This document shows, piece after piece, positions 15,018 through 49,019 of a stretch of DNA of 64,000 bases. Position numbers and translations under genes: made by a program. The notes below the pieces were generated by a model, which made no database searches, was not told the DNA's origin, and was given only the letters and a program-made list of their open reading frames with translations. The number at the start of each line of letters is the position of its first letter. The stretch's first letter is position 1. This stretch comes from Tistrella mobilis (GTDB lineage: Bacteria; Pseudomonadota; Alphaproteobacteria; Tistrellales; Tistrellaceae): NCBI RefSeq assembly GCF_041468085.1, contig NZ_CP121017.1:744001-808000 (forward strand), read 5' to 3'.

Positions 15018-18000
15018 ATGAGCGAAACGGTGTCCCCCGAGAACGAGCCCATCCCCCAGGTCGCTCCCGTCTCGCCCGCCTCCGACGAGGCGTCGGTCTT
15101 CCGGGGCAGCCTGCCGCTGGCGGCGAAGCTCGATCGGGCGCGGATGGAACTGCTCGATCTCTCGGCGCGCAACCGCCTGCTGAACCTGCCTCAGGCCCGG
15201 CGCAGCCGCATGCTCGACATCGTCGACGAGCGTGCGGCCGAAATCTACCGGCTGCTGGTGGGCGAGGGGCGGCGCTTCTCCTTCCTGCCCGGCCGCGAGG
15301 CCGGGGACGATCCGGCGGAAGAGGCTGCGGCGGAGGGAGATGTCCCGGCCCTGACGCAGCCTGAGGACCTGGCTGCGGATCCAGGCGGCCCGGCCGCCCG
15401 CCACACCGACACGAAGCTCCAGACCCGTCTCGGGTCGGAAGGATTGCAGCGCCGCCTGCTGGATCTGCACCTGGATGCGCGCACCCTGGAGGAAGAGCAG
15501 GGCGTCAACATCCTGTTCCTGGCCCTGGGCACGCTGGTCTGGACGGATCCTGCCGCCGGCGGTCAGCTGCGCCGGGCGCCGCTGGTGCTGGTGCCGGTGC
15601 AGCTGGAGCGCGGCAGCGCCACCGAGCGTTTCCGGCTGGCGGCACGGCCCGAGGACGTCGCGACCAATCTGTCGCTCGAAGCCTTCCTGGACCGCGAACA
15701 CGGTATCACCCTGCCTGCATTCGACGCGGAAGCCGAGGGCGAGACCGATCCGTTCACGGCCTATGTCGCGGCGGTCACCGAGGCGGTTCATGGCCGCAAG
15801 GGCTGGGAAGTCCGGCCCGACGAGGTGATCCTCGGCTTCTTCTCGTTCTCCAAATTCCTGATGTATCGCGACCTGGATCCGGCGGTCTGGCCCGCGGATG
15901 CGCCGCTGACCGACCGGCCGCTGATCCGCGGCCTGCTGGACGAGGGTTTCGGGGTCGAGGATGTCGATTTCGATGAGGACGTGCCGGTCGATCCGCTGAT
16001 CGGGCCCGAGGATCTGGTGCATATCGTCGATGCCGACGCCTCGCAGACGCTGGCGATCCACGAGGCGCGGCGCGGCCGCGATCTGGTGATCCAGGGCCCG
16101 CCCGGCACCGGCAAGTCGCAGACCATCGCCAATGTCATCGCCGCCGCGGTCGCCGACGGCAAGACCGTGCTGTTCGTGGCCGAAAAGATGGCGGCGCTGG
16201 AAGTGGTGAAGCGCCGGCTGGATCAGGCCGGCGTGGGCGAGATCTGCCTGGAGCTGCACAGCCACAAGGCGACCAAACGGGCGGTGCTGGAGGATCTGAA
16301 GCGCAGCTGGGAGCTGGGCACGCCCAGGATCGGTGATGACGAGACCCTGTTCCATCGCCTGGGCCGCAGCCGGGCGCAGCTGAATGCCCATGCCGAACGG
16401 CTGCATCGCGAACTGGAGCCGACGGGGCTGACGCCCTATCAGGTGATCGGCGAGCTGGTGCGTCTGCGCGCTGCCGGGGTGGCACCGGCCGATTTCGATC
16501 TGGCGGAAGCCGCCCCCGGCTGGAGCGCTGCCGAACGCGCGGCCCTTGCCGCGACGCTGGATGATCTCGCCCGCCGGATCGAGGCGGAGGGCCCGCCCGC
16601 GACCCATCCCTGGCGCGGGGTGGGGCTGGATGTGATCAGCCCGCTGGATGCCGACCGCCGGCTGGCCGAGATCGCGGCGCTGGAGCGCGGGCTCGCCGGC
16701 TGGCGCGAGGAGGCGGGCGCGATTGCCGCGCTGCTGGACGTGCCGGCCCCCGTCACGCTCGACGGCAGCGGACGGCTGCTGGCCCGGGCGGAACGGCTGG
16801 CGGCGGCACCTGATCTGCCGCCCGCGGTGTTCCTCGATCCGGTCTGGTCGGTGGCGGCCGACGATGTGGCGGTGCTGGTCCGGACCGGACTTGCGCTGCG
16901 TGATCAGGCGGCACGGCTGAGGCCGGGGCTCGCGCCCGCGGCGGCGGGACTTGCGATCGCTGATCTTCAGGCGGCGCGCGACCGGCTGACCGTCCTGCCC
17001 GCAGGTTTCGACACGGCGGCCCGCGACCGGCTGGCCCGGGTGACGGCGGCGCTGCCGGCGGTGGTGGAGGCGGCGAGCCGACTGGCCGGCCATCTGGGGC
17101 TGCCGGTGCCGGAAACCCTGCGCGAGGCCGAGGCGCTGACCGGCTGCGGCAAGGCCGTGGCGGAAGCCCCGGATCTGCCGGCGGAGCAGCTGGCGGCCGG
17201 GGTCTGGGAGGAGGAGCGGGCAGCGCTCACCGATCTGGTCGAGACTGTGCGTGCCGCGCATGACGCCCGTCTGGCGACCGGAGACATCTTTACCGAGGCC
17301 GCCTGGTCGACGGGGCTGGCCGAGGCCCGACAGGCGATCGCCGAGGCCGGCGGCAGCCTGTTCCGCATCTTCAGCGGCCGCTGGCGGCGGGCGAACCGGC
17401 TGGTCAAATCGATCCTGACCGGACCGAAGCCCGAGGATGGCGAACTGATCCGGCTGCTCGACCGGGTGATTGCCGGTCAGGCGGCGGCGGCAAGGGCAGA
17501 AGCGGGCGACGCCCTGGGCCGTGCCGCTTTCGGCCCGGTCTGGCGCGGTGCGCGCAGCGCGCCCGAGCGGCTGGAGGCGATGCTGGCCTGGGTGAACGGC
17601 CCGGCGGGCGACGCCGCGACCCGCCGGACCGCCGCAGCCTGTGCCGACCGGCCGCTTGCCGGCGATCTGGCCGCACGTCTCGCGGCGGCGGTTGCGGCGG
17701 TCCGTGACGATCTAGACCGGCTGGCGGAGGATCTGGGGGCGGCGGCCCCCGCCCTGCTCGGCACGGATCTGGGAGGGCAGCGGGCCCTGCTGGCGGCACC
17801 GGCCCTGCCGCCGGTGGTTGCCGCCGAGGCCGTGGTCGACATGGCCTTCGCCGCCCCGGCGGGCACCGCCGGCGAACGGCTCGCCGCCCTGGACGATCTG
17901 CTGGAGATGCGCCGGCGCGAGACCGTGCTTGCCGATGCCGCAGTCACCGGCCGTGCCGCCTTCGGGCCGCTCTGGCCGGCGGGTGATCGGGCGGTGGCGG

Positions 18001-20657
18001 ATTGGGATGCCATCGCCCGGGCGGCGGCCTGGCTGGCGGCGGAGCCGGATCTGCGCGCGCTGGCGGCACGTACGCCCGATCGTGCCGGGCTCCGCAGCCG
18101 TACCGCAGCGCTGGTCGAGGCCGGCCACGGCATCGTAGACCAGGTGGTCGGGTTGTGGTCCAGGCTCGCCTTCGATCCCAGGGCCATGTTCGGGGAGACC
18201 GGCATTCCGGATCTGGATCTCGATGTGCTGGCGGCCCATCTTCGCGGCTGGCTGGCGGCACCCGAGGGGCTGCCCGCCTGGGCCGCGATCGTCGCCGCGG
18301 CACGTGCCGCACGCGCTGCCGGTCTGGCACCGCTGGTCGACCGGCTGGAGGACGGCCGGCTCGACCGGGCCGGCGTGATGCCGGCCTTCGGGATGGCGGC
18401 CTATGAGGCGATCTGGCAGGCGATGACCAGGGCCGAGCCGGCGCTGGCCGGTTTCGACGGCACAGCCCAGGACGGGCTGGTGCGAAATTTCGCGGCGCTC
18501 GACCGGGCGCGGATCGACCTTGCACGGTCGGAAGTTCGGGCCGAACATGCCCGCGGCCGGCCGCGGGTCAACGGGCTCGGCCCCGTCGGCGTGCTGAGGG
18601 GAGAGCTTGCCAAGAAGCGCCGGCACATGCCGATCCGCCAGCTGATGAGCCAGGCCGGACCGGCGGTTCAGGCGCTGAAGCCGGTCTTCATGATGAGCCC
18701 GCTGTCGGTCGCCCAGTTCCTGGAACCGGGTCGGATCGGCTTCGACCTGCTGGTGATCGACGAGGCCAGCCAGATCCAGCCGGTCGATGCGCTGGGGGCG
18801 ATCGCGCGCTGCCGGCAGATGGTGGTGGTGGGCGACGAGCGCCAGCTGCCGCCCACCGCCTTCTTCGCCCGCATGACCGCCGATGCGGCGGAAGCGGACG
18901 AGGAGGACGAGACCACCCGGATCGCCGATGTCGAAAGCATTCTGGGGCTTTGCGTCGCCCGTGGCCTGCCCCAGCGCATGCTGCGCTGGCATTACCGCAG
19001 CCGGCATCAGTCGCTGATCGCGGTGTCGAATCACGAATTCTATCAGGACCGGCTGCATGTGGTGCCGAGCCCCTATGCCGGAGAGGCCGGGCTGGGGCTC
19101 GATTTCATCCATGTGGCCGACGGCGTGTTCGAGACCGGCGGCAGCGGCACCAACCCCGCCGAGGCGCGCCGGGTGGCGGCGGCGGTTATCGAACATGCCC
19201 GCACCACCCCCGATCGCTCGCTGGGCGTCGCGACCTTCTCGGTGCGCCAGCGCCGGGCGATCCTGGACGAGCTGGAAGCCCTGCGCCGCGCCCATCCCGA
19301 GACCGAGGCCTTCTTCAACGCCCATCCGGCCGAACCCTTCTTCGTGAAGAACCTGGAAAACGTCCAGGGCGATGAGCGCGACGTGATCTTCATTTCGGTC
19401 GCCTATGGCCGTAATGCCCAGGGCTATATGGCGATGCGCTTCGGTCCGGTTGGGGCAGAGGGCGGTGAGCGGCGGCTGAACGTGCTGATCAGCCGGGCGA
19501 AGCGGCTCTGCCGGGTCTTCGCTTCGATCACGGACGAGGACATCGATCTGGAGCGGGCGCGCGGCCGCGGCGTCGCGGCGCTCAAGACCTTCCTGCGCTA
19601 TGCCCGCACCGGCAGCCTGGAGGTCGCCCGCCGATCGGGTCGCCCGGCCGACAGCGTCTTCGAGGAACAGGTCGCAGGCGCGCTGCGGGCGCGCGGCCAC
19701 ATCGTCCATGAACAGGTCGGGCTTGCCGGCTTCTTCATCGATCTGGCGGTGGTCGACCCCGACCGGCCCGGCCGCTATCTGCTCGGCATCGAATGTGACG
19801 GCGCCGGCTATCACGCCGCACGCTCGGCCCGCGATCGCGACCGGCTGCGCCAGGCGGTGCTGGAGGATCACGGCTGGATCATCCATCGCATCTGGTCGGC
19901 CGACTGGTTCGCGCGCCCCGAGGGGCAGCTGACGGCGGTCGAGGCGGCCATCGCCCGGGCCCGCGAGATACTGGAGGCCCGGAGCGACGGCGGCCCGGCC
20001 GCGGCTGCGGATATCATGCCTGAGGATGTGGCGCTGGCTGCGGAACTGGGGCTTGAGGGCCGCGCGGACGACCTGCCGGCAGAGGAGGAACATCTCACCC
20101 CCGCCTATGTCGAGGCAGACCCCGAAGTGCCGGCCGAGCTGCAGGGGATGGAGCTGCATCAGGTGACGCCGGCGAAGCTGGCGCCGATGGTGATGGCGGT
20201 GGTGAAGGTTGAAGGACCGGTGCATCTGGACGAGGTGACGGCGCGGCTGCGCGATGCCTGGGGGCTGGGCCGTGCCGGGGCCCGCATCCAGGCCGCCGTG
20301 CGCGCCGCGGCATCCTATGCCATCCGCCGCCGCCATCTGGTCGAGGAGGGCTGGTTCCTGAGCCTTCCGGGGGAGGCGGTGCGTATCCGCGATCGCAGCG
20401 CCGTGACCTCGGCCGGTCTGCGCAAGCCTGAACTGCTGCCGCCGGCCGAGATCGAGGCCGGGCTGATGCGGATCGCGGCCGAAAATCTGGGCGTCACCCG
20501 CGAGGAGATGCAGCGCCAGCTCGCCCGGATGCTGGGCTTCCGCTCGCTGAGTGCCGGGTTGCGGTCGGTGACAGAAGACGAGATCCGCCGGCTGATGGAA
20601 GGCCGCCGGCTGATGGAGCGCGACGGGCTGATCGTCGCGGCCGACCCGGCGCCGTGA
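15018..20657 (+). CDS. DUF4011-SF1 helicase-nuclease-DUF3320 protein (Hhe-like, putative antiphage defence)
   Basis: A single 1879-residue protein. DUF4011-type N-terminus at about 30-330 (LLDLSARNRLLNL); SF1 helicase with Walker A GPPGTGKSQT near 360; an insertion of nearly 900 mostly Ala/Leu-rich residues; Walker B LLVIDEAS near 1245; motif III GDERQLPPTAFF; and late motif RLNVLISRAKRL. A PD-(D/E)xK/Vsr-like nuclease domain at about 1545-1640 has FEEQV, FFIDLAVV and IECDGAGYH, giving the E-D-E(x)D pattern. DUF3320 covers about 1700-1800. This order matches the DUF4011-helicase-Vsr-DUF3320 fusion known as the defence protein Hhe. It would degrade or unwind foreign DNA in the cytosol. No methyltransferase or partner is adjacent. 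Confidence 0.82.
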   Translation: MSETVSPENEPIPQVAPVSPASDEASVFRGSLPLAAKLDRARMELLDLSARNRLLNLPQARRSRMLDIVDERAAEIYRLLVGEGRRFSFLPGREAGDDPAEEAAAEGDVPALTQPEDLAADPGGPAARHTDTKLQTRLGSEGLQRRLLDLHLDARTLEEEQGVNILFLALGTLVWTDPAAGGQLRRAPLVLVPVQLERGSATERFRLAARPEDVATNLSLEAFLDREHGITLPAFDAEAEGETDPFTAYVAAVTEAVHGRKGWEVRPDEVILGFFSFSKFLMYRDLDPAVWPADAPLTDRPLIRGLLDEGFGVEDVDFDEDVPVDPLIGPEDLVHIVDADASQTLAIHEARRGRDLVIQGPPGTGKSQTIANVIAAAVADGKTVLFVAEKMAALEVVKRRLDQAGVGEICLELHSHKATKRAVLEDLKRSWELGTPRIGDDETLFHRLGRSRAQLNAHAERLHRELEPTGLTPYQVIGELVRLRAAGVAPADFDLAEAAPGWSAAERAALAATLDDLARRIEAEGPPATHPWRGVGLDVISPLDADRRLAEIAALERGLAGWREEAGAIAALLDVPAPVTLDGSGRLLARAERLAAAPDLPPAVFLDPVWSVAADDVAVLVRTGLALRDQAARLRPGLAPAAAGLAIADLQAARDRLTVLPAGFDTAARDRLARVTAALPAVVEAASRLAGHLGLPVPETLREAEALTGCGKAVAEAPDLPAEQLAAGVWEEERAALTDLVETVRAAHDARLATGDIFTEAAWSTGLAEARQAIAEAGGSLFRIFSGRWRRANRLVKSILTGPKPEDGELIRLLDRVIAGQAAAARAEAGDALGRAAFGPVWRGARSAPERLEAMLAWVNGPAGDAATRRTAAACADRPLAGDLAARLAAAVAAVRDDLDRLAEDLGAAAPALLGTDLGGQRALLAAPALPPVVAAEAVVDMAFAAPAGTAGERLAALDDLLEMRRRETVLADAAVTGRAAFGPLWPAGDRAVADWDAIARAAAWLAAEPDLRALAARTPDRAGLRSRTAALVEAGHGIVDQVVGLWSRLAFDPRAMFGETGIPDLDLDVLAAHLRGWLAAPEGLPAWAAIVAAARAARAAGLAPLVDRLEDGRLDRAGVMPAFGMAAYEAIWQAMTRAEPALAGFDGTAQDGLVRNFAALDRARIDLARSEVRAEHARGRPRVNGLGPVGVLRGELAKKRRHMPIRQLMSQAGPAVQALKPVFMMSPLSVAQFLEPGRIGFDLLVIDEASQIQPVDALGAIARCRQMVVVGDERQLPPTAFFARMTADAAEADEEDETTRIADVESILGLCVARGLPQRMLRWHYRSRHQSLIAVSNHEFYQDRLHVVPSPYAGEAGLGLDFIHVADGVFETGGSGTNPAEARRVAAAVIEHARTTPDRSLGVATFSVRQRRAILDELEALRRAHPETEAFFNAHPAEPFFVKNLENVQGDERDVIFISVAYGRNAQGYMAMRFGPVGAEGGERRLNVLISRAKRLCRVFASITDEDIDLERARGRGVAALKTFLRYARTGSLEVARRSGRPADSVFEEQVAGALRARGHIVHEQVGLAGFFIDLAVVDPDRPGRYLLGIECDGAGYHAARSARDRDRLRQAVLEDHGWIIHRIWSADWFARPEGQLTAVEAAIARAREILEARSDGGPAAAADIMPEDVALAAELGLEGRADDLPAEEEHLTPAYVEADPEVPAELQGMELHQVTPAKLAPMVMAVVKVEGPVHLDEVTARLRDAWGLGRAGARIQAAVRAAASYAIRRRHLVEEGWFLSLPGEAVRIRDRSAVTSAGLRKPELLPPAEIEAGLMRIAAENLGVTREEMQRQLARMLGFRSLSAGLRSVTEDEIRRLMEGRRLMERDGLIVAADPAP

Positions 20658-24294: not shown

Positions 24295-25755
24295 ATGGTG
24301 GCGGACGAGAGCGCATCGGAAGTTCTGATCATCGAGGACGACGCCCTTCTGGCCCGCCTTTACGCGGAACAGCTCCGTGGCGCCGGCATTCCTGCCGTGG
24401 CCGTGGGGACGGCGGCAGCCGCATTCGAACGGATTGCGGCGACACCGCCGGCGCTGGTGCTGCTGGATCTCAGCCTGCCGGACGCCAACGGGCTCGATAT
24501 TCTGGCCGATCTGCGCCGCCGGGGTGGCTGCGACGTGGTGGTGGTGACCGCCCATGGCTCGGTCAATGTTGCGGTCGAGGCGATGCGCGCCGGCGCCCAC
24601 GACTTCCTGGTGAAGCCGTTCCCGCCCGAGCGCCTGGTGGTGACGGTGCGCAACGCGCTGGCGCTGGGCACGCTCACCCGGCTGGTGGACCGCATCGGCG
24701 AGCGCGAGGCCTATTGCGGCATGATCGGCCGGTCGCTGGTCATGCAGGGCATTTACCGCATCATCGAAGGGGCGGCACAGAGCCGCGCCTCGGTCTTCAT
24801 CACCGGCGAAAGCGGCACCGGCAAGGAGCTGGCGGCCGAAGCGCTGCATGCCCGCAGCCCGCGCGCCCGCGGGCCTTTCGTCGCGCTCAACTGTGCCGCC
24901 ATCCCCCGCGACCTGATGGAAAGCGAAATCTTCGGTCATGTCCGTGGCGCCTTCACCGGCGCCCATACCGACCGGGAAGGGGCTGCCACCCGCGCCCATG
25001 GCGGCACGCTGTTTCTGGACGAGGTCTGCGAGATGGATCTGGCGCTGCAGAGCAAGCTGCTGCGCTTCCTCCAGACCGGGGCTTTTCAGAAGGTCGGCTC
25101 GGGCGTGACCGAGCGGGTCGATATCCGCATCGTTTCCGCCACCAATCGCGACCCGCTGGTGGAGGTGGAGGCCGGACGCTTCCGCGAGGATCTCTACTAC
25201 CGCCTGCACGTCGTGCCCATCCATCTGCCGCCGCTGCGCCAGCGCGGCGATGACGTGCGTCTGATCGCCCGCCATCTTCTGGACGATCTCGCGGCTCTTG
25301 AAGGCAAGGGATTCCGTCGCATCGATGCCGCCGCCGAAGCGGCGCTGGCGGCCTATCGCTGGCCGGGCAATATCCGCCAGCTCTATAACGTGCTTCACGG
25401 TGCGGTGGTACTGAACGACGGCGAGGTCCTGACTCTCGACATGCTGCCCGCCCAACTGCGCGAAGCCGAGGCGCTGTCGCTCAGGGCGGCCACGGCGGGT
25501 GCACCGCCGCCTGAACTCGATTTCGAACCGGTCGCTGATGGCGAGATCGACGACGCGGGCGATCTCGACTCCCCCAGCATCTATGGCGCGGAGGGCGAGA
25601 TCCGGCCGCTCTGGCAGGTGGAGCGCCTGGCTATCGAACGCGCAATCGATCTCTGCGGCGGCAATGTGCCGCGTGCCGCCGCCCTGCTCGGCATCAGCGC
25701 CTCCACCATCTATCGCAAGCGTCAAGCCTGGTCCGAGGCGCCTGCGGATCACTGA
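24295..25755 (+). CDS. LuxO-like sigma-54-dependent response regulator
   Basis: 486 residues in three domains. Receiver (1-120): acidic E14-D16, phosphoacceptor D58 in [11 protein letters not shown]85, and K107 in FLVKPF. AAA+ (about 140-375): Walker A GESGTGKE at 171-178, the sigma-54 contact loop GAFTGA at 218-223, and [10 protein letters not shown]-terminal Fis-type HTH (about 440-482; [18 protein letters not shown]). The AAA+ part is closest in memory to Vibrio LuxO, sharing [25 protein letters not shown]-like and [15 protein letters not shown]-like segments. No histidine kinase or phosphotransfer gene is adjacent, so it is an orphan here; it likely activates sigma-54 promoters elsewhere. 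Confidence 0.88.
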
Positions 25756-25767
25756 TCCGCCCGGTGG

Positions 25768-27507
25768 TCAGCTGCCGCGCAGCCCGGTGAGGCAACGGGG
25801 GCGGCCCAGAGCGGCGCCGCTGGCCCGGGCGAAGGCATGGGCGGTGCGCATTGCCCCGCCGGCAGCCAGGATCATCGCCCCCGCAAGCCCGGCCGGCGTG
25901 GCGGCGTTCTCGCTGCCGGCAGCAGTCCCGATCAGCGTGGTGGGGGCGAGGCATGGTGCCGCCGCCAGGGCGCGCGATGTCGTATGACCGTCAGCTTGGG
26001 GCGATGGGCGCCCGATCGGGCCATGGTCCTGCAATGGCTGGCAGATCACCTGTGCAATTTCGGCGAAGAGCGTGCAGGCGAGTTCCGCCATCCCGCCCGA
26101 GACCCGGGGGTCGAACACCGGGCCCGCCAGATCGAGATCCAGGCGGCGCTGGCCGCTGGCGATCATACGGCCGGCGATCCGCTCGACCTCGGCTGCCGCC
26201 GCTTCGGCCAGGGAGATCGGCTGCGGTGCGGCCAGGCGATCGGCGGCAGCGTTCAGGACGCGGGCGATGACCCGGGGCGCAATGCCCGCATCCTGGAGCC
26301 CCGGCCGCGGCCGGGGGGCGCCGTTGCCGAGGGCTGCGATGCGCGATCCGACGGCAGCGAGACCGGCGATGAGGCCAAGGGCCGAGAGCGTGGGCGCCAC
26401 GCCGTATTCGCGCGGCAGCGGCAGCCGCCAGGCGACATCCAGGCCGCCTGCGACAGGGGCGGCTCCGGTATCGGCCACCAGCATGGCCACGGAACGGGCC
26501 CCGCCCTGGCGCAGCCGGCGCGCCAGATCCTGCACCCCGTCCGTTTCGGCAGGTTCGGGCAGGATGATCGCGAGATCGACCGGCAGATAGGGGCGGGCGC
26601 CGTCCCAGGTCGGGCGGACCAGCACCTCCAGCCCATAGCAGCGCCGCCAAAGATCGGCCGCCGCGGCTGCGGCAGGCATCAGCGGGGGGGCGGCGCTGAA
26701 AGCGATGCGGCCGTGGATGCCGGCTGCCGCCGACACCGGCAGGGGGGCGGCTTCGGGGGCGACCAACCCCGCAGCCAGGCGCACCGCCCGGGCCAGATGA
26801 TCCAGATCATGAGCGGTGAGATCACGGCCGGCTGCCGGCATCGGCGGCACATCGGCCGGCCGGGCAGGCGGGCCGATGCGGCGCGCGATCACCCGGCCGC
26901 AGGCGTCGGTGACCCTGACCCGGTCGGCCGACAGAGTGGCGACGTCGCCCGGACGCAGCCCCACCGACACCGGATCGGCGCCGCTCAGCAGGCGTTCGTC
27001 ACTGGCAACCAGGCCGGTATGGTCACCCGCAGCAAAGCACAGCGCCGTCTCGCCGCGGGCGACGAACATCCGGCGGGGATCCTCGTCGATCAGCAGGGTG
27101 AAGGACATGTCGCCGCCGGTGCGGTCCATCAGCCGGCGCAGCGACAGCTCGGCGCTGTGGTCTCGCTGATCCAGATCGGCGAGCAGCCCGGCGAGTGCGG
27201 TGTTCCGGCGCAGATCGGCGGGGCTTGGCTCCACAAGGCCGTCGCCCAGCCCCAGCCGGCAGATCGCAGGCGCAGGGCCGACGATGCCAAGAGTCGCCTG
27301 CCCCAGGCGAATCAGCCGGGCATCCGGGCGTGTGGAGACTTCACCCGGAAGCTCCGGGCCGATCGCGGCCAGACCGGCTGCGGCACCAAGCGTGGCGAAC
27401 ATACGGGTGTCACGCCGCACGATGCGTGCCGGGTCCAGCTTGTCCAGTGCAGAATGCAAACGGTCACCGACCGGTTTGCCGTTCAGAATGCCGATCAGCG
27501 CGCTCAT
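25768..27507 (-). CDS. GlmS-like protein lacking catalytic residues (putative pseudoenzyme)
   Basis: 579 residues, close to the ~605 of glucosamine-6-phosphate synthase GlmS, with the same layout: an N-terminal glutaminase-like (Ntn) half and two SIS-like halves. The start reads MSALIGILNG where GlmS has MCGIVG, so the nucleophile Cys is absent. Recognisable glutaminase-domain segments include GGDMSFTLLIDEDPRRMFVA and TGLVASDERLL. The SIS part has SVAMLVADTGAAPV and PLPREYGVAPTLSALG. The C-terminal tail GRPRCLTGLRGS aligns by eye with the GlmS DxPRNLAKSVTVE tail but has no catalytic Lys. It is convergent with the LuxO-like gene. It may bind sugar phosphates as a regulator; this is inference. 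Confidence 0.65.
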   Translation of the reverse strand: MSALIGILNGKPVGDRLHSALDKLDPARIVRRDTRMFATLGAAAGLAAIGPELPGEVSTRPDARLIRLGQATLGIVGPAPAICRLGLGDGLVEPSPADLRRNTALAGLLADLDQRDHSAELSLRRLMDRTGGDMSFTLLIDEDPRRMFVARGETALCFAAGDHTGLVASDERLLSGADPVSVGLRPGDVATLSADRVRVTDACGRVIARRIGPPARPADVPPMPAAGRDLTAHDLDHLARAVRLAAGLVAPEAAPLPVSAAAGIHGRIAFSAAPPLMPAAAAAADLWRRCYGLEVLVRPTWDGARPYLPVDLAIILPEPAETDGVQDLARRLRQGGARSVAMLVADTGAAPVAGGLDVAWRLPLPREYGVAPTLSALGLIAGLAAVGSRIAALGNGAPRPRPGLQDAGIAPRVIARVLNAAADRLAAPQPISLAEAAAAEVERIAGRMIASGQRRLDLDLAGPVFDPRVSGGMAELACTLFAEIAQVICQPLQDHGPIGRPSPQADGHTTSRALAAAPCLAPTTLIGTAAGSENAATPAGLAGAMILAAGGAMRTAHAFARASGAALGRPRCLTGLRGS

Positions 27508-27618
27508 GGGGGGTCTCGCTCGAAAAAGGGGCGAACCATGTGGTCCGGTTGCCCCTCTTCTGGCAAACCCCGTGCCATGCCGCCGGCATATCACTGCGCA
27601 ATCAGCTTGAAAATCCGG

Positions 27619-28893
27619 TCATTTGCCGGTGGTGACAACACGCCAAAGCGTGCCGCCGGTATCATCGGCGATCAGCAGGGCACCGGCGCGGTCCACCGCC
27701 ACTCCGGCCGGTCTTCCCCATACCTGCGCAGGACTTCCGCGCCCGCCGTCGTCCAGGCGGAAACCCGAGGCGAAAACCTCGTAGACGCCGTCATCCACCG
27801 GTGTGCCGTCGGCGTCGAAGGGCACGAAGGCGACGACATAGCCGCGGGGCTCTGCCGCATTCCAGGACCCGCGCAGGGCGACAAAGGCTCCGCCGCTGTA
27901 TCGTTCCGGGAACATTGTGCCATCGTAGAACGTCAGTCCGATCGGTGCAGAATGCGCCTGAAAACGCAAATCGGGGGTGATCATACGCGTCAACCGCCCC
28001 TCGTCCTGCCCCTCCAGCCCGGGCTGGACCACCGGGTCGCCACCGGCACCGGGCCAGCCATAGGGCCAGCCGTAGAAGCCGCCTTCCTCAACCCGGGTCA
28101 GATAGTCGGGCACCAGATCGTCGCCCAGCCCGTCGCGCTCGTTGACCACGGTCCACAAGTCACCGGTCGTCGGATGGAGAGCCATCCCTACCGGGTTGCG
28201 CAGTCCGGTCGCGAAGCTCTGGCCTGCATCCCCCGGGCGGTCGAAGCGGCGGATGGTGGCCCGGGGTTCGGGCTCCACCCCGACATTGCCGCGCGAACCG
28301 ACGGAGACCCAGAAGCCGTCGGTCTCCGGATCGAGCTGAAGGCCGCGGGTCCAGTGGCCGCCGGCGCTTCCCAGCGCATCGGGCGGGGTCATGGCTTCGG
28401 GGTCGGCGGTGATGCGGGTGTCGCCGGGGCTATAGGGCCAGCGCCAGACCCCGTTGGTATCCGACACCCAGATCGTGCCCTCACGCAAGCCGATGCCGTG
28501 CGGGCGGGCCAGCCCGTCGATCAGGGTTTCGCGGACCTCTGCCCGGCCATCCCCGTCGCCGTCGCGCAGCAGGGTGATCTTTCCGGCCCGGCTCTCGGCC
28601 AGCAGCACATCGCCATTGGCCGCGACCGTCATCACCCGGGGATGATCCAGCCCTTCGGCGAAAAGGGTGGCGCGAAAGCCCTCGGGCACGCGCAGGGCCG
28701 CCCCCTCGGGCCGGTCGATGGTTTGCGGCGAATTCGCCGGGCTTGGGGCATTGCCCGGGGCGGGGAGGCGATCGGCATCGACCCGAAGCCGGGTTCCCGG
28801 CGCCGGATCGGCGGCGGCAGCGGTCTGGCCTGCCAGACACAGGGCCAGGCCGAGTGTCAGCCCGGCCCGGGCGATGGAGGTGGTGGCGGTCAT
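27619..28893 (-). CDS. PQQ-dependent sugar dehydrogenase-like (glucose/sorbosone dehydrogenase) exported protein
   Basis: 424 residues from the ATG at 28893, with a signal peptide to about residue 28 (ALCLAGQTAAAA). It has the six-bladed beta-propeller pattern of the GSDH/Asd family: FAEGLDHPRVMTVAANGDVL, LARPHGIGL, GLRNPVGMALHPTTGDLWT, RVEEGGFYGWPYGWPG and WGRPAGVAVDRAGALLIAD. Such proteins oxidise sugars in the periplasm with PQQ, though many members have unproven activity. No PQQ synthesis genes are nearby. It lies between the pseudo-GlmS and metC on the same strand, with 62- to 111-base gaps. Confidence 0.8.
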   Translation of the reverse strand: MTATTSIARAGLTLGLALCLAGQTAAAADPAPGTRLRVDADRLPAPGNAPSPANSPQTIDRPEGAALRVPEGFRATLFAEGLDHPRVMTVAANGDVLLAESRAGKITLLRDGDGDGRAEVRETLIDGLARPHGIGLREGTIWVSDTNGVWRWPYSPGDTRITADPEAMTPPDALGSAGGHWTRGLQLDPETDGFWVSVGSRGNVGVEPEPRATIRRFDRPGDAGQSFATGLRNPVGMALHPTTGDLWTVVNERDGLGDDLVPDYLTRVEEGGFYGWPYGWPGAGGDPVVQPGLEGQDEGRLTRMITPDLRFQAHSAPIGLTFYDGTMFPERYSGGAFVALRGSWNAAEPRGYVVAFVPFDADGTPVDDGVYEVFASGFRLDDGGRGSPAQVWGRPAGVAVDRAGALLIADDTGGTLWRVVTTGK

Positions 28894-28955
28894 GGCGTTT
28901 CCCTCGTCTCGGAAGTGTCGCCCGGCCGCCACCATGGTTGGGGTGTCCCTCCTGG

Positions 28956-30188
28956 TCAGGCGTCGGCCGCGGCGGCATAGCGGGCGAGGCCCGCATCCAG
29001 ATCGGCGATCAGATCGGCCGGATCTTCCAACCCGGCATGAATGCGCAACAGGGGGCCGCGGCCGGTCCAACGGTCGCGGGTGGCGGTGCGGGCCCGGCGC
29101 GGGTCGACCGGCAGGATCAGGCTTTCATAGCCGCCCCAGGAAAAGCCCATCTTGAACAGGGCCATGTGGTCGACCATCGCCGCGATCCGGTCGCGGCTGC
29201 CCGGCTGAAGCTCTACCGCAAACAGGCCGCTCGACCCCTTGAAGTCGCGCAGGAAGGCCTCGTGGCCCGGGCAGTCGGGCAGGGCCGGATGCAGCACCCG
29301 ACGCACCATGTCGTGCCCGGCCAGGTGCCGGGCAAGGGCCAGGCCGGTTTCGCGGTGCCGTGCCATGCGCACCGACAGCGTGCGCAGGCCGCGCAGCGCC
29401 AGATAGCAGTCGTCCGGCCCTGGAGGGGCGCCGATCTCGCTTGCCGCCCGGCGCAGCGCCGGGAAGGCCTCTTCGGTGGCGGAAAGCACGCCCAGCATGG
29501 CATCGGAATGGCCGACCAGATATTTGGTGCCGGCCTCCATGACCACATCGACCCCCATGGCGAGCGGCTTCAGATAGAGCGGCGTCGCCCAGGAATTGTC
29601 GAGCGCGGTACGCACGCCCGCGGCCCGGGCCGCGGCGATCATGGCCGGCAGATCGGCCACCTCGAAGGTGAGCGAGCCCGGTGCTTCCAGCATCAGCAGC
29701 TTCGTGTTCGGCCGGAAGTGATCGGCGACCGCAGCGCCGGCCATCGGGTCGACATAGGTGACGTCGACACCGTAGCGGCCGAGGAACTGATCGGCCAGCG
29801 CCCGGGTCGGCTCGTAGACGTTGTCGAGCACGACCACATGATCGCCTGCGCTGGTGAAGGCGGTGAGCATCGCCAGGATCGCCGTCTTGCCCGAGGCGAG
29901 CGCGATGCCCCGTACGCCGCCCGCCAGTTCGGCATAGGCGTCTTCCAGCGCATGGGTGATGGGCGTGCCGTAGCGGCCGTAATAGACCCCGCGGGTCGGA
30001 TCGGCCGCGGCCTTCGCCAGCGCGTCGAGTGTGGGGAACAGCACGGTCGAGGCGTGATGCACCGGCGGATTGACGATACCGTGATTGGCGAAGGGATCGC
30101 GCCCGACATGAACGATCCGGGTGTCGATCCCATGCTGATCGTCTGTCTGATGGCTCGTTTCCGCGCGGGGGCGCGTCTCGTCGGACAT
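28956..30188 (-). CDS. metC: Cystathionine beta-lyase
   Basis: PLP enzyme cleaving cystathionine to homocysteine, ammonia and pyruvate in methionine synthesis, cytosolic. 410 residues. The PLP lysine is K222 in EAGTKYLVGHSDAMLG; YYGRYGTPI, ALASGKTAI and ALDNSWATPLYLKPL are typical. The combination GTKYLVGHSD fits MetC better than gamma-synthases. No other methionine gene adjoins; 352 bases separate it from the divergent aap operon. Confidence 0.88.
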   Translation of the reverse strand: MSDETRPRAETSHQTDDQHGIDTRIVHVGRDPFANHGIVNPPVHHASTVLFPTLDALAKAAADPTRGVYYGRYGTPITHALEDAYAELAGGVRGIALASGKTAILAMLTAFTSAGDHVVVLDNVYEPTRALADQFLGRYGVDVTYVDPMAGAAVADHFRPNTKLLMLEAPGSLTFEVADLPAMIAAARAAGVRTALDNSWATPLYLKPLAMGVDVVMEAGTKYLVGHSDAMLGVLSATEEAFPALRRAASEIGAPPGPDDCYLALRGLRTLSVRMARHRETGLALARHLAGHDMVRRVLHPALPDCPGHEAFLRDFKGSSGLFAVELQPGSRDRIAAMVDHMALFKMGFSWGGYESLILPVDPRRARTATRDRWTGRGPLLRIHAGLEDPADLIADLDAGLARYAAAADA

Positions 30189-46730: not shown

Positions 46731-48542
46731 TCACCCGCGGATGCCGTGGGTGTCGAGCCAGAGTTCGAGCAGGGCCAGCTGCCAGAGCTTGGAGCCCCTG
46801 AGCGGGGTGATATGCGCCTTGGGATCGGCCAGCAGCCGGTCGACCGCCGCCTGGTCGAACAGGCCGCGCGACCGGGCGCCCTCGCTGCCCAGGCTGGCGC
46901 GGACCATCTCCAGATAGGGGCCTTCCAGATGCTTCAGCGCCGGCACCGGGAAATAGCCCTTGGGCCGGTCGATCACCGCATGGGGGATCACGGCGCGGGC
47001 GGCTTCGGCCAGCACGTATTTGCCCTGGGCCAGATGGCGGCCGTCGGGGGTGGTCTTCACCTTCATCTCGGCCGGCACGCGGGCCGCCAGTTCGACCAGT
47101 TCATGGTCGAGGAAGGGCACGCGCGCCTCCAGCCCCCAGCTCATGGTCATGTTGTCGACCCGCTTCACCGGGTCGTCGACCAGCATGATGTTGCTGTCGA
47201 TGCGCAGCGCCTTGTCGATCGGGCGCGTGGCGCCGGGCTGTGCGAAATGCTCGGCCACGAAACGGCGGGCATGATCCTCGTCGACCCGGTGTTCGGGCCG
47301 CACCAGCCCCAGATATTCGTCATGGGGGCGGTCGCAGAAGTGGCGGGCATAGGTCTCGACCGCGGCCTCGTCACCGGCGGCCAGCATCGGCGGATACCAG
47401 TGATAGCCGCCGAAGACCTCGTCGGCGCCCTGGCCCGACTGCACCACCTTCAGATCGCGCGAGACCGCCTCTGACAGCAGGTAGAAGCCGACCGCGTCAT
47501 GGCTGACCATCGGCTCGCTCATCGCCGCCACGCAATCGGGCAGGGCTTCGAGCGTTTCCGAGGCGGAGACCCGGATCTGATGGTGATCGGTGCCGAAATG
47601 CGCGGCCACGACATCCGACCAGCGGAATTCGTCGCCCTCTTCGCCGCCGGCGGCGTCGAAGCCGATCGAATAGGTCTTGAGATCCGTCTGCCCGGCCTCG
47701 GCGATCAGCCCGGTGATCAGGCTGCTGTCCAGCCCGCCGGAGAGCAGCACGCCCACCGGCACGTCGGCGACCAGACGGCGCCGGACGGCGGTACGCAGGC
47801 TGTCCAGCACCTTCGCCTGCCAGTCCTGGAAGGACAGGTCGCGTTCATCGGCGCGCGGGCCGTAATCGGGCGCCCAATAGACCTCGTCGCGGGCGGTGCC
47901 GTCGGGCTCGATGATCCGGCGGGTGGCCGGCGGCAGCTTGCGGATGCCCTTCAGGATGGTCATCGGCGCCGGAACCACGGCGTGGAACTGGAGATAGAAC
48001 TGCAGGGCCACCGGGTCGATACTGGTATCGACACCGCCGCCGGCGAGCAGGGCGGGCAGGGTACTGGCGAAGCGCAGCGTGCGGCCACGGTTCTCGATAT
48101 AGAGCGGCTTGATGCCCAGGCGGTCGCGGGCCATCAGCACCCGGCCGGTATCGCGCTCCCACAGCACGAAGGCGAACATGCCGGCCAGCCGGTCGACGAC
48201 CTTCGGGCCCCAGGCGCGATAGCCCTTCAGGATGACCTCGGTATCGCCGGTGGAGAAGAAGGCGAAACCCATCGCCTCCAGCTCGGCGCGCAGTTCCCGG
48301 TAATTGTAGATGGCGCCGTTATAGACCAGGCCGAGGCCCAGCCCGGCATCGATCATCGGCTGCTGGGCCTGTTCGCTGAGGTCGAAGATCTTGAGCCGGC
48401 GATGGCCGACCGCAATCCGCCCCTGGGCGTGGATCCCGGACGCATCCGGGCCACGCCTGTCCATCGCGGCGGTCATGCGTGCCACGGCTCCGACATCCGC
48501 CGTCGTGCCGTCGAACCTGATCTCGCCGCTGAAGCCGCACAT
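46731..48542 (-). CDS. asnO: N-acetylglutaminylglutamine amidotransferase (asparagine synthase-like)
   Basis: 603 residues. Class II glutaminase domain first, with the nucleophile as Cys2 (MCGFSGEIRF). The start is therefore the ATG at 48542, not the ATG at 48554 that sits directly on the AGGAGG. Glutaminase features include RRGPDASGIH and YNGAIYNYRELRAEL. The asparagine synthase domain follows with SGGLDSSLITGL (PPi loop) and SGQGADEVFGGY. It amidates the dipeptide C-terminus to finish NAGGN. First gene of the operon. Confidence 0.9.
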   Translation of the reverse strand: MCGFSGEIRFDGTTADVGAVARMTAAMDRRGPDASGIHAQGRIAVGHRRLKIFDLSEQAQQPMIDAGLGLGLVYNGAIYNYRELRAELEAMGFAFFSTGDTEVILKGYRAWGPKVVDRLAGMFAFVLWERDTGRVLMARDRLGIKPLYIENRGRTLRFASTLPALLAGGGVDTSIDPVALQFYLQFHAVVPAPMTILKGIRKLPPATRRIIEPDGTARDEVYWAPDYGPRADERDLSFQDWQAKVLDSLRTAVRRRLVADVPVGVLLSGGLDSSLITGLIAEAGQTDLKTYSIGFDAAGGEEGDEFRWSDVVAAHFGTDHHQIRVSASETLEALPDCVAAMSEPMVSHDAVGFYLLSEAVSRDLKVVQSGQGADEVFGGYHWYPPMLAAGDEAAVETYARHFCDRPHDEYLGLVRPEHRVDEDHARRFVAEHFAQPGATRPIDKALRIDSNIMLVDDPVKRVDNMTMSWGLEARVPFLDHELVELAARVPAEMKVKTTPDGRHLAQGKYVLAEAARAVIPHAVIDRPKGYFPVPALKHLEGPYLEMVRASLGSEGARSRGLFDQAAVDRLLADPKAHITPLRGSKLWQLALLELWLDTHGIRG

Positions 48543-49019
48543 GTCTGTCTCCATCCTCCTGTGATCCGAAGACGCGGACGGACCGGTTCCCGCGGGGGGC
48601 GGGACCGTTGCCGGTGGTCGGGGACGGGAGAGGAAGACGGGGCGCACCGGTGCGCGAGAATGTGAGCCGGGCCATAGCGGGCCCCGCACGTTCGGTCCGG
48701 CGACAAGGCGTCTGCCAGGGTCCCGACGTGTAGCAACGCGGCCACTGCCAAAACATCCGGCAATGGTCCGACGGTCCAAAGCGTCAAAGAGCTTCGGGCG
48801 AGCTGATCAAAGACGATCACTGCCCGATCCCGCAGAGACTAGCGGAAGATCATGGCAGGTTCACGTGTCATGGGCGTGACATGTTCAGGATCAGATGAGC
48901 CGGAAGAGGGATCAAATGATCGCGGAAGATTGTCGTGCCGCCGATTGTCCTTGAGCGGTTCGTCCGAAAACGTGTCCCAGACTTGGGGCTTCGGCTGGGA
49001 ATGTCAACCTTCAGGAACG
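48543..49019. other. Gene-free region upstream of the NAGGN operon
   Basis: About 480 bases without a gene I can support. It must contain the promoter of the NAGGN operon. The only structure I see is an imperfect inverted repeat TGTCAT-GGGC-GTGACA at 48866-48881, about 320 bases before asnO, a possible operator. The stretch at 48770-48960 is less GC-rich than its surroundings, and is the likeliest promoter zone. Confidence 0.35.

What the first reader, a model, noticed from the sequence alone, without database searches (positions are those of the whole stretch)
25768..27507. Full-length GlmS paralogue that has lost both active sites
The length and domain order of GlmS are kept, but the N-terminal Cys nucleophile is replaced (MSAL...) and the C-terminal tail DxPRNLAKS becomes GRPRCLTG without the Lys. 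Loss in both halves suggests a dedicated pseudoenzyme, perhaps a sensor of fructose-6-P or GlcN-6-P, or a partner of true GlmS. It is convergent with the LuxO-like regulator.
Basis: partly seen in the sequence, partly recalled or inferred. Interest (0 to 1): 0.65.

Follow-up and report, generated by a model that had tools for sequence, protein, structure and literature searches.

The report
Dead glucosamine-synthase look-alike in Tistrella
A bacterial gene descended from the enzyme that makes glucosamine phosphate has lost its catalytic residues, yet it is kept intact in the three related genomes examined and sits behind what looks like its own dedicated switch, so it probably has a regulatory rather than a catalytic job.

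Summary
The ORF is real: window 25768-27507, minus strand, 579 aa, in a Tistrella genome (Alphaproteobacteria). It is intact and in the same gene order in 3 of 3 Tistrella genomes held, with dN/dS 0.16-0.20, so it is not simply decaying. It descends from GlmS: the second half of the glutaminase domain aligns clearly and the first SIS domain modestly but collinearly; the second SIS domain cannot be recognised. In all three species Cys1 is Ser, the YRGYDS (Arg26) and TDTE motifs have no counterpart, SQSGET is PEPAET or PDPADL, and the tail lacks Lys603. A normal glmS lies elsewhere. No orthologue was found outside Tistrella. New here: an exact sigma-54 promoter motif (one of 13 in 6.3 Mb) lies 56 nt upstream of the start codon, conserved in three species, and the convergent neighbour encodes a LuxO-like sigma-54 activator. 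A terminator-like hairpin spans the predicted transcription start; read-through RNA can form it fully, sigma-54 transcripts only a weaker inner stem. Best reading: a sigma-54-switched GlmS pseudoenzyme, perhaps a regulator of amino-sugar supply; that last step is inference.

The parts
25768..27507 (-). CDS of the GlmS-derived pseudoenzyme, 579 aa
   Evidence: Open frame; orthologues in the two other Tistrella genomes held are 86-87% identical to it and intact, 3 of 3 genomes in all; dN/dS 0.16-0.20, changes concentrated at codon position 3
27436..27507 (-). N-terminal stretch, residues 1-24, aligned with GlmS 1-24; Cys1 is Ser
   Evidence: hhalign score 28.2 against a shuffled maximum of 22.5, 0 of 100; not significant pairwise (480 of 500 shuffles against own GlmS, 72 of 500 against E. 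coli); Ser in 3 of 3
26815..27198 (-). Second half of the glutaminase (Ntn) domain, residues 104-231 (segment used; the significant match covers about 105-216)
   Evidence: hhalign E 2.2e-7, 0 of 100 shuffles; keeps G154, S191 and D192 of GlmS, E. coli numbering
26251..26595 (-). First SIS (sugar isomerase) domain, residues 305-419, phosphate loop SQSGET changed to PEPAET
   Evidence: Collinear alignment, modest statistics: 9 of 100 and 26 of 500 shuffles; 5 of 14 highly conserved GlmS residues kept
25771..26250 (-). C-terminal part, residues 420-579, where the second SIS domain would be; not recognisable
   Evidence: No score above shuffles for residues 400-579; low-confidence models
27563..27577 (-). 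Sigma-54 promoter motif TGGCACGGGGTTTGC, its last base 56 nt upstream of the first base of the start codon
   Evidence: One of 13 exact matches in the 6.3-Mb genome against 2 for the reversed-pattern control; -24 and -12 elements invariant in three species while the spacer changes
27523..27560 (-). Terminator-like hairpin with T-run whose 5' arm spans the predicted sigma-54 start
   Evidence: Fold -19.2 kcal/mol entire, -7.3 to -8.6 from the predicted starts; also predicted in both relatives; only moderately unusual against shuffles; a terminator scan reports the inner stem 27547-27532
24295..25755 (+). Convergent gene for a LuxO-like sigma-54 response regulator (receiver, AAA+, Fis-type HTH)
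   Evidence: Pfam domains and NCBIfam LuxO match 579 bits, below the 800 cut-off; dN/dS 0.05-0.12
27619..29070 (-). Upstream gene in the same direction, glucose/sorbosone dehydrogenase-like; true start probably downstream of the listed TTG
   Evidence: PF07995 E 5e-13; orthologues align only from residue 44 or 54

Best explanation
The gene encodes a non-catalytic descendant of GlmS (glutamine:fructose-6-phosphate aminotransferase). It keeps the scaffold of the back half of the glutaminase domain and, less certainly, the first SIS domain; it has lost the glutaminase nucleophile, the glutamine-binding motifs, the phosphate loop and any recognisable second SIS domain. It is transcribed from its own sigma-54 promoter, most likely by the convergent LuxO-like response regulator; a hairpin over the transcription start weakens read-through from the upstream dehydrogenase gene. 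Steps shown: homology, loss of residues, selection, promoter motif and its conservation. Inferred: that the protein is inactive in the test tube, that the promoter works, that the LuxO-like protein is the activator, that the hairpin terminates, and that the protein acts by binding (GlmS itself, or a sugar nucleotide or phosphate) to change amino-sugar supply for envelope or exported polysaccharide when the LuxO-like pathway is on. Confidence about 0.85 for a GlmS-derived pseudoenzyme under selection, 0.75 for sigma-54 control, 0.5 for the LuxO-like protein as activator, 0.3 for a GlmS or amino-sugar regulatory role.
For: Homology: hhalign E 1.4e-6 and segment tests. Residue losses in 3 of 3 species. 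Real glmS elsewhere, 787 bits. Purifying selection: dN/dS 0.20, 0.20, 0.16 in the three pairs, no stops or frameshifts. Gene order the same in three genomes. Sigma-54 motif: 13 exact in the genome, reversed control 2, conserved; other sites among the 13 precede a DctA-like transporter ORF and an acetone-carboxylase-like ORF (recognised by eye from their N-termini, not by a search). rpoN is present. LuxO-like activator adjacent, with the best LuxO score of all matches in the genome.
Against: No binding partner, ligand, activity or expression was tested. The genome has about a dozen sigma-54-activator-like matches, and no upstream activating site was identified; the one repeat search for it failed on its input and was not repeated. 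Several of the 13 motif sites have no obvious gene behind them, so some are chance. A sigma-54 transcript would still keep a six-pair stem before the T-run, and its leader is predicted to pair over the start codon. Selection is weaker than on glmS (dN/dS 0.02-0.04) and weakest in part of the SIS1 region (0.44 in columns 291-348). The second SIS domain, part of the GlmS dimer (recalled), is not recognisable, which weakens a heterodimer model. Forty neighbourhoods of LuxO-like relatives elsewhere (of 71 matches) lack any such gene, so the pairing is not widespread.
Confidence: 0.45

Rival explanations
1. A repurposed scaffold with a function unrelated to amino sugars, for example a binding or adaptor protein for some other process switched on by sigma-54 (quorum or nutrient signal, surface structures).
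For: Sugar-phosphate loop destroyed and second SIS domain unrecognisable; divergence so deep that Pfam finds nothing; the lowest dN/dS values (0.04 and 0.08, first pair) fall in the glutaminase remnant and the following linker (alignment columns 175-232 and 233-290), with 0.08 also in columns 59-116, and not in the SIS part (0.44, 0.31, 0.30 in columns 291-464).
Against: Descent from GlmS and the reported sigma-54 link to envelope precursor genes in general (PMC3162934, passages read) make an amino-sugar role the simpler guess, but nothing here tests it.
Confidence: 0.35
2. A new enzyme: the glutaminase remnant with an N-terminal Ser acts as an Ntn hydrolase, or the SIS domain catalyses another sugar reaction.
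For: Ser is a known N-terminal nucleophile in other Ntn hydrolases (recalled); the Ser is invariant in 3 of 3.
Against: The motifs holding the glutaminase substrate residues are absent in 3 of 3 (YRGYDS, TDTE, HTRWATHG), and HNG aligns with GDG in a less certain part of the alignment. First SIS phosphate loop lost.
Confidence: 0.08
3. A decaying duplicate on its way out.
For: Faster evolution than glmS (dN/dS 0.16-0.20 against 0.02-0.04).
Against: Intact in 3 of 3 species with dN/dS far below 1, similar to the dehydrogenase (0.16-0.18) and O-antigen-ligase-like (0.13-0.19) neighbours; conserved promoter motif.
Confidence: 0.03
4. Not a GlmS relative at all: chance similarity in a high-GC frame.
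For: Weak single-sequence scores; the window has many long spurious frames; pairwise against its own GlmS the glutaminase segment is reached by 36 of 500 shuffles.
Against: Third-position bias of changes in this frame (49/37/163); collinear profile match, 0 of 100 shuffles for the glutaminase segment and 0 of 500 pairwise against E. coli GlmS; conserved in three genomes with a promoter motif.
Confidence: 0.03

Closest known systems
GlmS / GFAT (NCBIfam TIGR01135; E. coli GlmS)
   Same: Collinear similarity over the N-terminus, the second half of the glutaminase domain and the first SIS domain; similar length (579 against 608 aa in this genome)
   Different: Nucleophile, glutamine-binding motifs, phosphate loop and Lys603 lost; second SIS domain not recognisable; about 15-20% identity; far under the family cut-off
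GlmR (YvcK) of Bacillus subtilis, a UDP-GlcNAc-binding protein that stimulates GlmS (PMC7525490, abstract and outline read)
   Same: Possible analogy in role: a separate protein that tunes GlmS
   Different: The abstract does not describe GlmR as a GlmS paralogue; no such activity was shown for the present protein
Catalytically dead paralogues that activate their enzyme, e.g. trypanosome AdoMetDC prozyme and trypanosomatid deoxyhypusine synthase paralogue (PMC5201418, PMC3663545; abstract starts in the listing only)
   Same: Dead paralogue alongside an active enzyme in the same genome
   Different: Eukaryotic, other enzymes, and complex formation reported there
Sigma-54 control of the GlmS pathway through QseF and GlmY/GlmZ in E. 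coli (PMC6075780 and PMC7073468, abstract starts in the listing)
   Same: A sigma-54 response regulator placed over amino-sugar supply
   Different: There a small RNA gene carries the promoter; here a GlmS-derived protein gene carries the motif, and the neighbouring regulator is LuxO-like

Membership tests
GlmS (active glutamine:Fru6P aminotransferase) | N-terminal Cys1 nucleophile | tested here: not met
   Ser in 3 of 3 species
GlmS (active glutamine:Fru6P aminotransferase) | Glutamine-site motifs (YRGYDS with Arg26; TDTE with Asp123; HTRWATHG) | tested here: not met
   Absent from all three proteins; aligned with gaps or with TRMFATLG/TRMFATHG. The exact extent of the deletions is uncertain; active-site roles recalled
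GlmS (active glutamine:Fru6P aminotransferase) | Phosphate loop SQSGET in the first SIS domain | tested here: not met
   PEPAET in the window, PDPADL in both relatives
GlmS (active glutamine:Fru6P aminotransferase) | Lys603 in the C-terminal tail | tested here: not met
   No Lys in the last 12 residues in 3 of 3
GlmS (active glutamine:Fru6P aminotransferase) | Lys485, Glu488 and His504 of the second SIS domain | tested here: inconclusive
   The region cannot be aligned. HGP occurs in the window protein only, not in the relatives, so a kept His504 is unlikely
GlmS (active glutamine:Fru6P aminotransferase) | NCBIfam TIGR01135 curated cut-off of 418 bits | tested here: not met
   23.2 bits; the other gene scores 787
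GlmS-derived (homology) | Ntn glutaminase domain | tested here: met
   Second half E 2.2e-7, 0 of 100 shuffles; the first half is abbreviated and not reliably alignable
GlmS-derived (homology) | Two SIS domains | tested here: inconclusive
   First collinear with modest statistics; second not detectable. A model built with 15 GlmS rows matches E. coli GlmS 269-435 at Z 14.1, rmsd 3.3, 154 aligned, among other SIS proteins up to Z 15.1, but mean pLDDT is 45.5 and the rows bias it
Pseudoenzyme | Homology to an enzyme, catalytic residues lost, gene maintained by selection | tested here: met
Pseudoenzyme | No catalytic activity | not testable with these tools
   Needs purified protein
Sigma-54-dependent gene | -24/-12 promoter motif at proper spacing, upstream of the gene | tested here: met
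   With two mismatches allowed the window as a whole has fewer matches (5) than shuffles (mean 9.8); the case rests on the exact match
Sigma-54-dependent gene | Requires RpoN and an activator in vivo | not testable with these tools
   rpoN present; no expression data
LuxO (neighbouring regulator, NF041946) | Curated equivalog cut-off of 800 bits | tested here: not met
   579 bits; receiver, sigma-54 AAA+ and Fis-type HTH domains present, so LuxO-like only

The most novel reading that the evidence does not exclude
Tistrella controls amino-sugar flux with a dedicated dead copy of its entry enzyme: a LuxO-type sigma-54 pathway switches on a pseudo-GlmS that binds and retunes the active GlmS, a protein-level counterpart of the small-RNA route that sigma-54 uses in E. 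coli.
Probability: 0.2. Interest if true: 0.75.

Novelty: new variant of a known kind. Interest (0 to 1): 0.5.

Why it matters
GlmS is the entry point to UDP-GlcNAc and is controlled in bacteria by a riboswitch, small RNAs and partner proteins (riboswitch recalled; the others seen). A maintained, sigma-54-switched dead GlmS would be a further mode of control, and it gives a clean test of whether dead paralogues regulate this enzyme. The leader arrangement (promoter start inside a terminator-like hairpin) would also be a simple way to make a gene respond mainly to one sigma factor.

Tried and rejected
Wider family: profile searches with the three orthologues hit 23 of 387 class genomes and 28 of 397 phylum genomes. 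Three of the class hits (the Tistrella genomes) and one phylum hit (the window's own genome) are the gene itself. The 20 other class loci and the 8 newly fetched phylum loci all carry the GlmS tail PRNLAKSVTVE (28 of 28; 27 of 28 also show the MCGI start, L058 not). Of the 29 other phylum rows, 10 are covered by these loci and 19 were not fetched. Of the three weak non-Tistrella hits of the first single-sequence search, L008 and L009 are GlmS and L010 shows no GlmS motif and is taken as chance. The class and phylum searches scored at most 3 candidates per genome, so a very distant homologue could be missed. No match in the plasmid collection. The one scan of named genomes uses short exact patterns and reaches close relatives only.

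Synteny: 40 of the 71 non-Tistrella LuxO-like matches were fetched with flanks (several cut by contig ends); none holds an ORF of 80 or more codons matching the pseudoenzyme or GlmS profile at E<=10, and one of 40 shares another neighbour of the window.

Structure: the model from two orthologues alone has mean pLDDT 31 and its fold matches are mostly helical bundles, taken as meaningless. The model with 15 GlmS rows has mean pLDDT 45.5 and matches GlmS and other SIS proteins, but is biased by those rows.

Origin: pairwise scores put the C-half nearest to the Tistrella GlmS (top 3 of 127) but the glutaminase part nearer to others (Tistrella GlmS at ranks 87-89 of 127), so origin by recent duplication is not claimed. 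The 127 are those of 139 candidate GlmS that passed a start, length and motif filter; 12 were dropped; 113 are distinct.

One search's script stopped with an error after printing the pseudoenzyme values; the other genes were redone. dN/dS is Nei-Gojobori without correction for base composition.

A short upstream reading frame ending at the start codon, seen by eye in the window, is out of step in one relative (one-base insertion, alignment) and was dropped. No Rfam family at gathering score in the window.

Papers: 'GlmS' with 'pseudoenzyme' gave 1 unrelated paper; five paralogue or inactive-GlmS phrases gave 7 papers whose titles do not concern a dead GlmS, texts not opened; 'glucosamine-6-phosphate synthase' with 'pseudoenzyme' none; at least three of four SIS-domain pseudoenzyme terms none. 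Only open-licence PMC text was searched.

Full report
What is there. The finding names window 25768-27507. On the minus strand this is an open frame of 579 codons, MSALIGILNGKPV...GRPRCLTGLRGS. A pattern-based scan of named genomes found one relative, in Tistrella mobilis KA081020-065, 85% in its best segment. The window's genome and two others of the same genus are the only three genomes of its order held, and 3 of 3 carry the gene. One of the two is taken to be this same T. mobilis record: the gene is letter-for-letter the same in L007 and L011 and the contig length is equal.

Is it a gene? The window protein is 86-87% identical to the other two, which are 96% identical to each other, without stops or frameshifts. 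Nei-Gojobori dN/dS is 0.20, 0.20 and 0.16 for the three pairs, and the changes by codon position are 49/37/163 for the first pair. That is purifying selection, though weaker than on the true glmS (0.02-0.04) or the LuxO-like neighbour (0.05-0.12), and similar to the dehydrogenase (0.16-0.18) and O-antigen-ligase-like (0.13-0.19) neighbours. The long plus-strand frame over the same region (25837-28980) is in another register: third positions of the minus-strand gene are its first positions.

Is it GlmS-derived? Single-sequence evidence is weak: NCBIfam glmS at E about 1e-5, nothing from Pfam or the PDB. Profile-profile alignment gives E 1.4e-6 over residues 104-375, with a separate weak match of residues 1-26 to GlmS 1-26. 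By segments against column shuffles: residues 1-110, 0 of 100 shuffles reach the score (the match is residues 1-25); 100-240, 0 of 100; 240-420, 9 of 100; 400-579, 73 of 100. Pairwise the picture is patchier. The glutaminase segment is reached by 0 of 500 shuffles against E. coli GlmS but by 36 of 500 against this genome's own GlmS. Residues 1-110 are not significant (480 of 500 and 72 of 500). Residues 305-419 lie against 334-448 of the own GlmS with two two-residue gaps (26 of 500 shuffles reach the score of the C-half; 445 of 500 do against E. coli GlmS). The glutaminase half is solid. The first SIS domain rests on modest scores plus correct order and register. The second SIS domain cannot be shown. 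Structure prediction did not settle it: mean pLDDT 31 from two orthologues, 45.5 when 15 GlmS rows were added; only the latter resembles GlmS, and those rows bias it.

What is lost. Against 113 distinct GlmS sequences, 80 positions are at least 97% conserved. In the three alignable segments 11 of 25 such positions are kept (3 of 7, 3 of 4 and 5 of 14). Kept: Met0, Leu20, Leu23, Gly154, Ser191, Asp192, Glu351 (Asp in both relatives), Glu396, Val399, Ala400 and Thr402. Changed in all three species are, among others, Cys1 to Ser, Gln348 to Glu or Asp, Ser349 to Pro and Lys403 to Leu. The other 55 positions lie where the alignment is not reliable (48 of them in 27-125 and 449-608) and are not counted. 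In those parts I rely on the absence of motifs: YRGYDS, TDTE, HTRWATHG and LAKS occur in none of the three proteins, nor does SQSGET from the alignable SIS segment; a remnant TRMFATLG (TRMFATHG in the relatives) may correspond to HTRWATHG. Between residues 26 and 104 the protein is a net 22 residues shorter than GlmS between 26 and 126. HGP, which looks like the His504 motif, is in the window protein only. The catalytic roles of these residues are recalled, not from a call. The genome's normal glmS, with MCGI start and PRNLAKSVTVE tail, lies at G000:C4:2924253-2926073.

How it may be switched on. The intergenic region upstream is 111 nt. It holds TGGCACGGGGTTTGC at 27563-27577, an exact -24/-12 sigma-54 motif (consensus recalled) whose last base is 56 nt before the start codon. 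The whole 6.3-Mb genome has 13 exact matches, and the reversed pattern has 2. From those numbers the chance of one in the 120 nt before a given gene on the right strand is about 1e-4 (arithmetic). The two elements are identical in three species, while the spacer is GGGT in two and GAGC in one. Loose matches say nothing: with two mismatches allowed the window has 5 against 9.8 in shuffles, and this site is the only one with fewer than two. Some of the 13 have no obvious gene behind them. The convergent gene, 12 nt away, encodes a response regulator with receiver, sigma-54 AAA+ and Fis-type HTH domains, the best LuxO-like protein in the genome among about a dozen sigma-54-activator-like matches. 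rpoN is present. No upstream activating site was identified, and no systematic search for one was completed (one search failed), so the pairing is by position only.

A leader detail. A hairpin with a T-run at 27523-27560 folds at -19.2 kcal/mol when entire and is also predicted in both relatives (-19.3 and -17.0). Against shuffles it is only moderately unusual (z -2.4, -1.6, -0.9). The predicted sigma-54 start, 12 nt after the -12 element (spacing rule recalled), falls inside its 5' arm, so a sigma-54 transcript keeps only an inner stem of -7.3 to -8.6 kcal/mol. That inner stem is itself reported by the terminator scan (27547-27532, six pairs), so the difference is one of strength. In the longer sigma-54 leader the predicted fold pairs over the start codon. 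I infer that the hairpin lessens read-through from the upstream dehydrogenase gene more than it hinders the gene's own promoter. The start is not mapped.

Reach. Outside Tistrella no orthologue was found: the 28 loci fetched from the class and phylum hits are ordinary GlmS, and 40 neighbourhoods of LuxO-like relatives, of 71 matches, have no such gene. The gene order from the O-antigen-ligase-like gene to the ABC transporter gene is the same in the three Tistrella genomes, so the gene was probably in place before these species split.

Mechanism and verdict. The evidence supports a GlmS-derived pseudoenzyme maintained in one genus and probably transcribed by sigma-54 RNA polymerase. What it does is inference. 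GlmS is stimulated by a separate protein, GlmR, in Bacillus subtilis (PMC7525490, abstract), and sigma-54 has been associated with envelope precursor genes across genomes (PMC3162934, passages). So a regulator of GlmS or of amino-sugar supply is a reasonable first guess, at about 0.3; a repurposed scaffold is at least as likely (0.35) when taken as one broad class. No paper on a dead GlmS came up in the searches.

Noticed in passing
window 15018-20657 (+): A 1879-aa protein with DUF4011, AAA helicase parts, an MTES_1575 restriction-endonuclease-like domain and DUF3320; matches the candidate anti-phage defence models PDC-S37 (1840 bits) and Hhe (747 bits).
   Followed up: partly
window 27523-27560 (-): Terminator-like hairpin whose 5' arm contains the predicted sigma-54 start site; possible partial insulation of a sigma-54 gene from read-through.
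   Followed up: partly
window 46731-48779 (-): Asparagine-synthase-like protein (named by eye) with an intact MCGF start of a glutaminase domain, a contrast to the pseudoenzyme.
   Followed up: no
window 25755-25768: Stop codons of the LuxO-like gene and the pseudoenzyme are 12 nt apart in convergent orientation (11 nt in both relatives); their transcripts may overlap.
   Followed up: no
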